In this document: positions 1 through 3,075 of the stretch, in pieces
Layout: each line of letters starts with the position of its first letter
Position numbering within the stretch: position 1 is the first letter of the stretch
Assembly: GCF_000239155.1 (NCBI RefSeq)
Contig: NZ_AGVX02000216.1
Span: 1 to 33,921 of the forward strand
DNA from: Actinoalloteichus spitiensis RMV-1378
GTDB taxonomy: Bacteria; Actinomycetota; Actinomycetes; Mycobacteriales; Pseudonocardiaceae
Length of the DNA: 33,921 nucleotides
Reading direction: 5' to 3'
Program-made: the position numbers and the translations under genes
Notes under the pieces: model-generated
What the model was told of the DNA's origin: nothing
Databases searched by the model: none
The model's input: only the letters and a program-made list of their open reading frames with translations

Positions 1-594
1 CGGCTGCCGGTCGTCCTCCGCCAGCAGCGGCCCGCGTCGACGCCGGATCCGCAACACCCCGGCGTCCACGCTGGGGGCCGGCCGGAACGCCCGGGCCGGA
101 ACCCGGTCGACCAGGTCGAACTCGAACCACGGCCAGTGCGCGGCGGTCATCATGGTCGCCCCACCCACCCCGGCACGTTTCCTGGCCACCTCCCACTGGA
201 GCAGCAGCACCGCCGTGTGCCAGTTCGCCCGCTCGTCGAGCAGGCGCCGCAGCAGCGGAGTGGTCAGGTGGAACGGCACGTTCGACACCACGACGTGGTC
301 GGTGGTGGGAGCTCGGTACCGGAGGAGGTCGGCCCGGACGACGCGGGCCGAGTCGCCCAGCCGGGCGGCGAGGCGGCGCGCCCGGGACGGGTCGAGTTCG
401 ACGGCGGTCACCGGGCGACCCAGGTCGACCAGGGCCGAGGTGATCGCGCCGTCACCGGCTGCCAGCTCCAGGACGGGGTCCGGCGCGGCCGATGCCACCA
501 GCTCGGCGATCAGGCGGACGACGGCGCGGTCGACCAGGAAGTTCTGGCCGAGTTCGTGCCGCCCCCCGACGGGACTGTGGGAACGGGAGGACAC
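1..594 (-). CDS. erm: Erm-type 23S rRNA adenine N6-methyltransferase (3' end outside window)
   Basis: Transfers methyl groups from S-adenosylmethionine to the 23S rRNA adenine (A2058 in E. coli numbering), giving macrolide-lincosamide-streptogramin B resistance. Seen: ELGQNFLVDR near the N-terminus (the family's QNFL box), the SAM-binding stretch VLELAAGDGAIT, and the catalytic-type box VVSNVPFHLTTPLL (N-V/I-P-F/Y motif IV). RNA-binding residues follow (LLLQWEVARKRAG and FRPAPSVDAGVLRI). 198 codons are present; family members are usually 250-290 residues, so the C-terminus lies left of position 1. Start GTG at 594 is chosen because AGGAG stands five bases before it and the protein then begins shortly before the QNFL box. 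The reading frame upstream is open only to a stop at 790-792, which is the stop of the leader peptide. Family assignment is firm; the erm class cannot be given. Confidence 0.93.
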   Translation of the reverse strand, partial: MSSRSHSPVGGRHELGQNFLVDRAVVRLIAELVASAAPDPVLELAAGDGAITSALVDLGRPVTAVELDPSRARRLAARLGDSARVVRADLLRYRAPTTDHVVVSNVPFHLTTPLLRRLLDERANWHTAVLLLQWEVARKRAGVGGATMMTAAHWPWFEFDLVDRVPARAFRPAPSVDAGVLRIRRRRGPLLAEDDRQP

Positions 595-789
595 TGCTGC
601 TCCTGCGAGGACGTTGGTGGGGATGTCCGGGCGGCGCACGGCACGCGCGGACGGGAGAACGTCGGAACAGACGGCGGCGTGGTCCCACTGCCACGGGCCC
701 GCGACTCGGACCCGGTGGTGGTCAGACGGAACTGACCACGGTCCGGGTGGAACGCGGGGGCGCGAGCGGTACGAAGGGCGACACCGCCG
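595..789 (-). promoter_or_regulatory. Candidate attenuator leader of the erm mRNA
   Basis: About 195 transcribed bases separate the leader-peptide stop from the erm start, and they contain no other plausible gene. Two compact hairpins are visible at 782-799 and 718-739. The 3' arm of the first (781-788) could instead pair with 673-680 (8 pairs, one G-U). The AGGAG before the erm start can pair weakly with TCCT just after the GTG. This arrangement is typical of erm translational or transcriptional attenuators, but the switching order of the structures is inference. Confidence 0.55.
718..739 (-). other. Second hairpin in the erm leader
   Basis: GTGGTCAG and CTGACCAC form a perfect 8-bp stem with a 6-base loop. 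It lies between the leader peptide and the erm start. Flanking GGACC and GGTCC could extend it past a small bulge. No U-run follows, so it is not an obvious intrinsic terminator. Confidence 0.5.
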
Positions 790-799
790 TCAGGCGGTG
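782..799 (-). other. Hairpin over the leader-peptide stop codon
   Basis: CACCGCC and GGCGGTG form a perfect 7-bp stem with a 4-base loop; the TGA of the leader peptide lies in the loop region. A ribosome paused at the Arg-Leu-Arg codons just upstream would cover the 5' arm and open this hairpin, as expected for an erm attenuator. Confidence 0.6.
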
Positions 800-837
800 C
801 GCAGCCTCACGAAGAAGGAGGCGGAGAAGCAGGACAT
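790..837 (-). CDS. erm leader peptide with RLR stalling motif
   Basis: A 15-codon ORF reads MSCFSASFFVRLRTA then stop. It is in the same frame as erm and ends 195 bases before it. Many erm genes are preceded by a short peptide on which a macrolide-bound ribosome stalls; the well-studied class represented by the ErmD leader stalls at Arg/Lys-X-Arg/Lys, there MRLR. The VRLR here matches that motif. It is close to the C-terminus, and the following hairpin is placed to be disrupted by the stalled ribosome. The ATG lies only about 8 bases after the -10 box, so the message probably starts at or just before the ATG with no Shine-Dalgarno. The coding call is inferred from position and motif, not from homology to a known leader. 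Confidence 0.75.
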   Translation of the reverse strand: MSCFSASFFVRLRTA

Positions 838-844
838 GGCGGGA

Positions 845-874
845 ACCGTAGGCTCCGCCCCCCGCCGGAGTCAA
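845..874 (-). promoter_or_regulatory. Promoter of the leader peptide and erm
   Basis: On the minus strand TTGACT (874-869) and TACGGT (850-845) are separated by 18 bases, a good match to the principal actinomycete sigma factor. The expected start is near 838, one or two bases before the leader ATG at 837, so the transcript would be leaderless, as reported for one of the ermE promoters. Confidence 0.65.
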
Positions 875-986
875 CGCGGTTTCCGTGAGAGGACGGCCAC
901 CCGCCACCCGCTGGTGAAGTTCTTCGGAGCGTTCGCTCGCGTGATCGCGGCGCGGACCAAGCCGCGCCGCGCGAGAACGTCGACGG

Positions 987-3075
987 CTATGGTGCCTCGG
1001 CCTTCATGACCTCCAGTGCCAGTTCCCAGAGGGACCCTTCACCAGGGACGTGCCATCGACTCGGCCCAGGGATCGACTTCGATTCGCTTCCGGTCGCCAG
1101 GAGGATCATGTGCTTGACCAGCCGGGTCGGGGAGTAGGACTTCCCGTCCACGGCCCAGATCAGGGGCTTTCCTCGGGTGTTGCTCCAGGTGGCCTGCGCC
1201 CGACGAGGGTCAGCGGCAAGCCATGCGCTGAGCTGGAGTCGTTCCGGCTTGGTGCCAGCGCGGAATTCGAGCGCCGTGCCGTCGGCGAGACGACCAGCGT
1301 CGATCAATGTCGGAACCGCGTTGGCCCGGCGTTCGTTGCTTTCCTTCGTCAGCGGCCGGTAGTCCTCGGGAAGCTCCGGCATGGAAGTTCCCTTGGTGAT
1401 GCCCTCGAGGACCCTGCTCGCCAATACCCGACACCGTTCGGGTTTGGTGAAGACGGTGAGGACGTGACTGCTGGAGCCGAACGTGGCGTTGACCTCGTAG
1501 CTCATCCGCTCGATGACAGCGTCGGTCAGCTCCGGGATCCGCTCCAGTTCGTCGTCCCACCCCCCCGTCCGGCTCGTCCATTGCCCGACTCGACAGGAGC
1601 TGGAGGACCACGTGCGTGGTCAGCAGGTTCGCCTGCTGCACAATCTGGGCCGCACGGCCTTCCAACGCGGTCTGTCGGGCACGCAGCCTGGCCGAGACCT
1701 CTCGCAGGGCCTGCACGGTCCGCCATACCCTGAACGCGGACGGTTTGCCGCCGAACAGTGCTTGGTAGGCCCCTTGCTCCCCACGCTCCCACAGCAGCGA
1801 GCTGTCACGCTTCGCCCGTGCCGCCCAGTCCGGGTTGCGGTGGGCGCAGGCCAACGCCCTGGCCGCCTCGACCACGGAACAGCCCGCGTCCGGCGCTGGA
1901 TCGACCTCTCCCCGTTTGACGACGTAGGTCTTGTGCAATGACAGGGCGAACTCGTCGCGCAGCCTGGCCTGGTCGGGGTCCAAGGCGACGAAATCCCTCG
2001 CCTCGACCCGGTTCTGTGTGTTCGTCGCCTTCGTCACCGCGCTGGCGAAACCCTCAGGACAGTGCTCCAGGGAGATGAAACGGACCCATACGCGGCCACG
2101 AGCCAGCGCCTCCGGTGCCTCACGTGTGGCCTCGCTGATGGACTTCACGGTCTGGGCACCGTTGACGACACTCGCTCCGGTCAGGTGGAATTCCCCCGTC
2201 GCGTAGCGAGCCGTTCGCCGCACCGAGTCGCAGAGCACCGTGATCCCGTTGTTGAAGTACCAAAAATGCTCAGGTTTCTCGCGTAGAGTCCGCATCAGGT
2301 CCCTGTTGACCTCGGTGACGCCCAACGAGCGGCGGATGTTCTTCGCGAACAGGCGTTCTCCGTGTTCCGAGTACCAGCGAGCCACCTCGGCGACGGGCAT
2401 GGTCCCGTAGTAGGCGCGGTAGGGGTCGGCCAACTGGCCCACGTCCTCGATGTGAGCCTCCAGTTCGATGGCGGGATCGGCCAGGCCGTCTCGGACGAAC
2501 CGGTGGAAGTCCGCAAGCGTGCGTACGACGACGTCCAGCATCGGTTCGTCGCCGTCGTTCATCTTCGCGCAGATGGTGTCGAGTTCGGCGGTGATCTCGG
2601 GTGCCAGTTCGCTCTGTCCCATCAAAGCGATCACAAGGGTGATGCGCACCCCTGGAGTGGCGAGGGCCTCGTCCACCTCGCCCGCGATCTTCTGGAACCG
2701 CGAGTTGAAGTGGTCGTACTCGCCGTTGACCAGTTTGGTGAGCCCCCGCTCCAGCTTGAGCACCGCGCTCAGATCCAGGCCGGCCTTGGCGCGGTCGCTC
2801 CACTTCGTCTGGACCAACCAGACATGCGGCGCCCCGCCACTGTTGACCGCCACGCCGTCGATGCCGTGATCGTCACGGCCGTCGATGACCCCAGCCGCCG
2901 CGTCGGCCGTGGTGCAACCGGTGATGTCCTGGATCGCGAACGCGGTCAAGGCCCGGGACAGGTAGACCTGTTCGCGTTCCGGTGCCGACCTCTTCTCCAC
3001 GTCGGACATCTCGATGTGATCGGAGAACTCCCGTAGGAGGGCGTCACGAATGTGCCGGATCTTCAACGCGAGCAT
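987..3075 (-). pseudogene. AIPR-family phage-resistance protein, frameshifted
   Basis: Abortive-infection phage-resistance (AIPR) family protein with a nuclease-like N-terminus. The first frame gives about 505 good residues from ATG 3075 (AAAGGA before it). GIDG at 71-74 and QTK at 89-91 resemble the D...QxK core of PD-(D/E)xK nucleases. The AIPR core follows: NIRRSLG (246-252), FWYFNNGIT (271-279), VVNGAQT (303-309), TKATNTQN (348-355) and DFVALD (361-366). At a run of seven C on the plus strand (1560-1566) the frame is lost. Removing one base restores WDDELERIPELTDAVIERM and about 190 more residues to the stop at 987, total near 695. As written, the first frame runs on with unrelated sequence to 1210. 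It could be a real mutation, phase variation at the tract, or a base-calling error. GC looks lower than in the neighbours, hinting at horizontal transfer. Confidence 0.85.

What the first reader, a model, noticed from the sequence alone, without database searches (positions are those of the whole stretch)
594..874. Leaderless leader peptide with Arg-Leu-Arg in front of erm: a macrolide-sensing attenuator
A TTGACT-18-TACGGT promoter ends 7 bases before the ATG of a 15-codon ORF (MSCFSASFFVRLRTA). The peptide ends in VRLR-TA, the Arg-X-Arg motif known to stall macrolide-bound ribosomes on the ErmD-type leader. A 7-bp hairpin holds its stop codon, and erm starts 195 bases on with a good AGGAG. 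The combination of a leaderless leader ORF and an RLR motif in a high-GC actinomycete looks like a distinct variant of erm control.
Basis: partly seen in the sequence, partly recalled or inferred. Interest (0 to 1): 0.82.

Follow-up and report, generated by a model that had tools for sequence, protein, structure and literature searches.

The report
Leaderless drug-sensing leader before erm
In front of a macrolide-resistance gene in an Actinoalloteichus bacterium lies a tiny gene, apparently starting at the very end of the mRNA, whose Arg-Leu-Arg ending most likely stalls drug-bound ribosomes and switches resistance on; comparison shows that nearly all related erm genes in actinobacteria, and some drug-pump and ribosome-protection genes, share this switch design.

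Summary
On the minus strand, ATG 837 to TGA 790 encodes MSCFSASFFVRLRTA, 7 nt after TTGACT-18-TACGGT; erm starts at GTG 594 with AGGAG. It is not chance: 94 of 103 non-redundant actinobacterial erm upstream regions carry a short ORF ending in RxR plus 0-3 residues and starting 6-8 nt after TANNNT (0.1 expected, 0 on the other strand); plasmid Erm(X), Erm(36) and Erm(55) have it too. New here: (1) the promoter has a WblC/WhiB7-type box (GAAACC, 3 nt before the -35); (2) leader end and spacer form a conserved chain of competing RNA arms (closed A:B, C:D, E:F; open B:C, D:E) with covariation, RxR being placed so that a stalled ribosome would cover A but leave B free; (3) a covariance model finds the same module before TlrC-type ABC-F and LmrA-type efflux genes; Rfam has no match. 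The window has a long-spacer version (A:B 10 bp; B:C' 11 bp). Best explanation: a WblC-driven, macrolide/ketolide-sensing translational attenuator. No experiment was possible; arrest and induction are inferred.

The parts
878..883 (-). WblC/WhiB7-type box GAAACC, 3 nt upstream of the -35
   Evidence: sequence; consensus GAAAWY-3-TKGMNN from PMC7157823, 5 of 6 here; box score enriched over leaders, 46% vs 0.5% of random positions
869..874 (-). -35 TTGACT
845..850 (-). -10 TACGGT, 18 nt from -35, 7 nt before ATG
   Evidence: the -10 to start distance is 6-8 nt in all 81 leaders tabulated
790..837 (-). leaderless leader ORF MSCFSASFFVRLRTA*, arrest motif R11-L12-R13 at 807-799
   Evidence: 48/48 identical in A. 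caeruleus
823..832 (-). arm Z: leader codons 2-5 (CUGCUUCUCC), 9 of 10 bases complementary to the erm Shine-Dalgarno region
   Evidence: free fold; cognate duplex -13.4 vs -8.5 kcal/mol for foreign partners
793..802 (-). arm A (GCGCACCGCC), last codons of the leader
   Evidence: hairpin A:B -18.7 kcal/mol
778..788 (-). arm B of the closed-state hairpin; 791-781 pairs with C' in the open state
   Evidence: A:B -18.7, B:C' -22.7 kcal/mol
707..748 (-). strong mid-leader hairpin (GTGGTCAG/CTGACCAC plus outer pairs), counterpart of the D:E hairpin
   Evidence: covariance-model match 813-692, 24.1 bits; fold
670..680 (-). arm C' ACGCCGCCGTC, 11 bp with B; 8-bp core kept in four relatives
600..604 (-). 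erm Shine-Dalgarno AGGAG
1..594 (-). erm, 23S rRNA (A2058) methyltransferase, GTG start, 3' end cut by the contig end
   Evidence: NCBIfam and Pfam

Best explanation
This is a doubly gated, macrolide/ketolide-inducible translational attenuator of erm. Step 1 (inferred from the promoter): WblC/WhiB7 raises transcription when translation is inhibited; the mRNA starts at, or within a base or so of, the leader ATG at 837, so the leader is translated leaderless. Step 2 (inferred from the motif): a macrolide-bound ribosome stalls at R11-L12-R13, Leu12 in the P site. Step 3 (from RNA anatomy): without drug the ribosome finishes and leaves, the leader end (A) pairs with the segment after the stop (B), and the erm Shine-Dalgarno region stays closed, here probably also by pairing with leader codons 2-5. 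A ribosome stalled at RLR covers A up to the stop codon but leaves B free; B pairs with C', downstream pairings shift, and the erm start region opens. The same A-F design, with covariation, is seen across actinobacterial erm genes and before some ABC-F and MFS resistance genes.
For: 94/103 erm upstream regions with an RxR-terminal leaderless ORF vs 0.1 expected and 0 on the opposite strand; -10 to start 7+-1 nt in 81/81. R1 is coded AGG, CGG or CGC and the middle residue is L, I, P, T, D and others: selection acts on the +x+ peptide. Exactly 2 residues follow RxR in 63/81 and 1 in 12, the geometry that masks A and spares B. Open-state helices: 79.4% of cells paired vs 38-51% slid, 51 double-change cells vs 25.9 shuffled, 0/500; closed-state helices 80.9% vs 34-50%. 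Cognate B:C and D:E pair better than foreign arms. Forcing the leader to be ribosome-covered raises predicted erm RBS accessibility by more than 0.15 in 31 loci and lowers it in 5 of 78. A WblC/WhiB7 orthologue is in the genome. ErmDL RLR stalls with Leu7 in the P site (PMC8298421); Erm(X) is already thought to be attenuation-controlled (PMC3350403). No intrinsic terminator.
Against: No transcription start, arrest or induction data for any of these loci. In the window the predicted gain of RBS accessibility is small (SD core 0.13 to 0.20-0.22) and the arms after C' align poorly with the main class. The +x+ motif is essential for ketolide but not for erythromycin arrest on ErmDL. C:D and E:F are conserved without covariation, and A:D and A:F also beat shuffled arms. 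The CM match of the window is weak (24 bits).
Confidence: 0.8

Rival explanations
1. Transcriptional rather than translational attenuation: leader stalling prevents premature (Rho- or hairpin-dependent) termination in the 195-nt spacer, as for tlrA, lmrC and whiB7.
For: tlrA and lmrC in Streptomyces are controlled by transcriptional attenuation (reference list and text of PMC8546547); the spacer holds strong hairpins.
Against: No intrinsic-terminator-like site in 560-1000; in the main class the last arm directly pairs with GCGGAG, the Shine-Dalgarno, next to the ATG.
Confidence: 0.12
2. The leader is only a by-product of a leaderless WblC promoter; WblC alone induces erm and the RLR codons have no sensing role.
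For: WblC box and WblC orthologue; WblC regulates Erm(O) in S. coelicolor.
Against: RxR is kept in 94/103 leaders with changing codons and fixed distance to the stop; leaders without a recognisable WblC box keep RxR.
Confidence: 0.05
3. The sensed drugs are not, or not mainly, macrolides: the leader may sense lincosamides, other 50S drugs or general translation stress.
For: The same module precedes LmrA-like lincomycin efflux genes; some ABC-F leaders lack RxR (L142, L143).
Against: +x+ is the known macrolide/ketolide arrest motif; Erm acts on A2058.
Confidence: 0.1

Closest known systems
Erm(X) leader peptide of Corynebacterium plasmids (MLISGTAFLRLRSNR here, L117)
   Same: RLR near the C-terminus, -10 seven nt before the ATG, hairpin over the stop codon, erm about 100 nt on; CM match 26.7 bits
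   Different: spacer about 100 nt instead of 195; no clear WblC box; the literature held here mentions its attenuation but not leaderless initiation
ErmD/ErmDL (Bacillus), RLR class of arrest peptides
   Same: Arg-Leu-Arg arrest motif (PMC8298421)
   Different: in ErmDL the RLR is at codons 6-8; here RLR sits 2 codons before the stop and the ORF is leaderless
ErmC translational attenuator
   Same: stalled ribosome frees a buried Shine-Dalgarno by swapping hairpins (as described in PMC10219788)
   Different: different arrest motif (own knowledge); here a chain of about six arms and a leaderless leader
WblC/WhiB7 regulon promoters
   Same: GAAAWY-3-TKGMNN-16 to 19-TANNNT layout, TSS 7-8 nt after the -10 (PMC7157823)
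   Different: here the start coincides with a leader-peptide ATG
Leaderless amino-acid leader peptides of Streptomyces (trpL, leuL, ilvL)
   Same: leaderless leader ORF plus attenuator (PMC8079986)
   Different: contain codons of the regulated amino acid; mostly followed by terminators
lmrC, tiaA, are5sc uORFs
   Same: antibiotic-sensing uORFs in Streptomyces
   Different: different uORFs (MLV, MVGDDDISG), transcriptional attenuation, lincosamide/streptogramin A/pleuromutilin response

Membership tests
RLR (+X+) class of macrolide-arrest leader peptides | Arg/Lys-X-Arg/Lys in a short leader ORF before a resistance gene | tested here: met
   R11-L12-R13; conserved in relatives
RLR (+X+) class of macrolide-arrest leader peptides | drug-dependent arrest with X in the P site | not testable with these tools
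   needs toeprinting
erm translational attenuators | mutually exclusive hairpins, one burying the erm RBS, one freed by stalling on the leader | tested here: met
   main class; window: A:B and B:C'; RBS burial in the window only from folding
erm translational attenuators | inducibility by macrolides | not testable with these tools
   no expression data
transcriptional attenuators | intrinsic terminator between leader and gene | tested here: not met
WblC/WhiB7 regulon | GAAAWY box 3 nt upstream of the -35, spacer 16-19, TANNNT | tested here: met
   GAAACC-GCG-TTGACT-18-TACGGT, 5/6 in the box; WblC orthologue present
WblC/WhiB7 regulon | WblC binding and wblC-dependent induction | not testable with these tools
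   needs ChIP or a wblC mutant
leaderless transcripts | transcription start at the start codon | tested here: inconclusive
   -10 placed 7 nt before the ATG, 6-8 nt in 81/81 relatives; start not mapped
known Rfam RNA families | match above gathering score | tested here: not met
Main-class A-F attenuator of this report | covariance-model match ending at the erm start | tested here: inconclusive
   window matches 813-692 (24 bits, E 0.0024 in the window) but ends 98 nt short of erm; a long-spacer subclass

The most novel reading that the evidence does not exclude
A previously undescribed actinobacterial RNA family: a portable antibiotic-sensing 5' module (WblC-type promoter fused to a leaderless +x+ leader peptide and a six-arm domino switch) that controls unrelated 50S-drug resistance genes: erm, TlrC-type ABC-F, and LmrA-type and other MFS efflux genes.
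Probability: 0.6. Interest if true: 0.8.

Novelty: new variant of a known kind. Interest (0 to 1): 0.7.

Why it matters
If true, the inducible macrolide resistance of much of a phylum, including mobile Erm(X), Erm(36) and Erm(55), rests on one shared design that may sense ketolide-type as well as macrolide drugs, couples a global stress activator to a ribosome sensor, and starts on leaderless mRNA. It gives a directly testable rule (RxR two codons before the stop, B just after it) for predicting inducible resistance in actinobacteria, including antibiotic producers, and a model system for drug-dependent arrest of leaderless translation.

Tried and rejected
Intrinsic terminator or transcription attenuation: no site. 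Rfam: no family. RNAalifold on the full gapped alignment in Python gave no structure, so structures were written by hand from arm complementarity and tested with controls. A universal 5'-end:RBS helix (Z:F) was tested: better than permuted partners over 20 clusters (-12.2 vs -10.3 kcal/mol, 1/300), strong in the window, but absent in several groups, so it is listed as an extra, not a defining part. In (labels; block length) codon numbering was one off (block 47 is Arg11 in the P site, block 50 is Leu12); conclusions do not change. The pikR1/pikR2 paper (PNAS 2015) could not be read, so its leader is not compared. A first, narrower motif (hydrophobic, Pro or Cys middle residue) found 76/103; widening to R-any-R gave 94/103.

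Full report
WHAT IS THERE. All features lie on the minus strand. TTGACT (874-869), 18 nt, TACGGT (850-845), 7 nt, then ATG 837 of a 15-codon ORF, MSCFSASFFVRLRTA, TGA 792-790. The RLR codons are 11-13 (807-799). erm begins at GTG 594 with AGGAG (604-600) after 195 nt and is cut by the contig end; its best models are Erm46 and Erm38, Pfam RrnaAD. One other in-frame start exists at 639 but 594 has the Shine-Dalgarno and aligns with relatives. The nearest named relative is Actinoalloteichus caeruleus DSM 43889 (91% Erm identity). Between the two, the leader ORF is identical (0/48 differences), the promoter region differs at 6.4%, the spacer halves at 2.0% and 6.2%, erm at 6.6%, and the DNA upstream of the promoter at 48.7%: the conserved unit starts at the promoter.

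NOT CHANCE. From 111 loci 103 non-redundant upstream regions were kept. 94 hold an 8-30 codon ORF ending R-x-R plus 0-3 residues, starting at ATG/GTG 6-8 nt after TANNNT; Markov shuffles give 0.1 on average (maximum 1), the opposite strand 0. Five more have RxR with a longer tail (Pseudonocardia type). The -10 to start distance is 7 nt in 50, 8 in 22 and 6 in 9 of 81, the distance at which WblC-promoter transcripts start (7-8 nt, PMC7157823), so leaderless initiation is likely but not mapped. The middle residue is I, L, P, T, D, F, Y or E, R1 is AGG, CGG or CGC: the +x+ peptide, not the DNA, is conserved. Plasmid genes Erm(X), Erm(36) and Erm(55) have it, Erm(50)/Erm(51) have GRLR with a longer tail, and Erm(46) has lost the first Arg.

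PROMOTER. GAAACC lies exactly 3 nt upstream of the -35, matching the S. coelicolor WblC box GAAAWY in 5 of 6 positions. Over the leaders the combined box and -35 score averages 7.5 against 5.3 at random positions; 46% versus 0.5% reach 8.5. A WhiB7 orthologue with 64% identity over query residues 17-89 is in the genome (the query was the M. tuberculosis WhiB7 sequence written from memory). Some genera (for instance Agromyces) show no recognisable box.

RNA SWITCH. In most relatives the leader stop and the erm start are 100-116 nt apart (median 107) and the spacer has recurring arms: A, end of the leader; B, CGGCGG right after the stop; C, CCGCCGC; D, GCCGGTGCGGC; E, GTGCTGCCCGGCTCCG; F, GCGGAGC next to the ATG. 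Neighbouring arms are complementary, giving a closed set A:B, C:D, E:F (Shine-Dalgarno buried) and an open set B:C, D:E. On 44 sequences the open set is paired in 79.4% of cells (slid controls 38-51%), with 51 double-change cells against 25.9 in shuffles (0/500); the closed set in 80.9% (slid 34-50%) with little covariation. Duplex energies of true arm pairs beat foreign arms for B:C (-15.6 vs -13.8 kcal/mol) and D:E (-21.5 vs -18.5), slightly for A:B (-12.4 vs -11.5), not clearly for C:D and E:F. RxR lies 2 residues before the stop in 63 of 81: with the middle residue in the P site the ribosome front (about +15/16) reaches the stop codon, hiding A and sparing B. Blocking that stretch raises predicted RBS accessibility from 0.34 to 0.45 on average (31 loci up by more than 0.15, 5 down, of 78); a ribosome at the start codon has nearly the same predicted effect (0.44), so this calculation alone does not single out the RxR position.

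THE WINDOW'S OWN VERSION. A:B is 802-793 with 788-778 (10 bp, one bulge, -18.7 kcal/mol); B also pairs 11 bp with C' at 680-670 (-22.7 kcal/mol); both are kept in L004 and, with sequence changes, in L009-L011. Between B and C' sits a strong hairpin (748-707). The covariance model matches 813-692 with 24.1 bits, so the first 100 nt resemble the main class and about 98 nt more separate it from erm. The free fold pairs erm's GGAGCAGCAG with leader codons 2-5, better than 99% of foreign partners. How the last arms free the Shine-Dalgarno here is the weakest step: predicted accessibility rises only modestly.

BEYOND ERM. The model found the module in 38 of 150 genomes of the family and 10 of 198 of the class, under strict filters. 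Besides erm it directly precedes ABC-F genes of the TlrC/CarA/OleB/SrmB type (leaders MVRLGPVFWVRIRLR, MNIRFMRLRNRR), LmrA-like DHA2 efflux genes (MSGASAAATAAVTRTHRL...VTRTLRH) and another MFS group (MPASDRLRRP, MPKAVRTRRR). Three of these downstream proteins (L140, L142, L151) were checked against NCBIfam; the others are named by sequence resemblance to them. Rfam has no counterpart.

COMPARISON. Functionally it works like ErmC/ErmD-type attenuators and is closest to the Erm(X) leader. ErmDL arrests at Leu7 of Arg6-Leu7-Arg8, with RLR essential for telithromycin but dispensable for erythromycin (PMC8298421), so conservation of +x+ hints at ketolide-type inducers. Leaderless leader peptides are known for amino-acid attenuators in Streptomyces (PMC8079986); other antibiotic uORFs in Streptomyces are different. 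I found no description of a leaderless RxR module shared by erm, ABC-F and MFS genes in ten full-text searches, but subscription papers, among them the pikR1/pikR2 study, were not readable, so novelty is provisional.

VERDICT. Observation confirmed; attenuator reading supported; 'distinct variant' replaced by a design found across actinobacteria. Shown: sequence, conservation, statistics, covariation. Inferred: start site, arrest, induction, order of arm swaps.

Noticed in passing
L140-L149, L151, L155, L159-L163: The same leaderless leader plus RNA module directly precedes ABC-F (TlrC type) and MFS (LmrA-like and another) genes; the leaders of L142/L143 lack RxR, and L163 ends RPWTRA.
   Followed up: partly
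L118 and L122 (Erm(46) plasmids): Leader ends TEFRRF: the first Arg of the motif is Glu, while the RNA arms look intact; inducibility may differ. A third Erm(46) stretch (L123) was fetched but not used.
   Followed up: no
L091, L109, L114, L115, L082: Leaders of Streptomyces and Catenulispora have Cys- or Cys/Ala-rich N-termini (e.g. MSACSCACAACACAACAAMTRIRRP) of unknown role.
   Followed up: no
L081, L094, L102, L103, L106, L107, L110, L111 and L124: Microbacterium/Cryobacterium/Kocuria variants end R-D/E-R-R-A/S and have a divergent spacer.
   Followed up: no
L035, L077, L083, L084, L105: Mostly Pseudonocardia leaders carry RLR followed by 8 or so more residues (e.g. RLRRDARTPRS), with a different downstream RNA.
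   Followed up: no
window 987-3075 (-): AIPR-domain gene (Pfam PF10592) appears split by a frameshift near a C run at about 1561; the C-terminal part seems to continue in another frame (987-1505).
   Followed up: partly
many loci, e.g. L013, L020, L038, L046, L049: First 8-9 nt of the leaderless mRNA are complementary to the bases around the erm start (AUGGGUG/CACCCAU, UGUGUGUGC/GCACACACA).
   Followed up: partly
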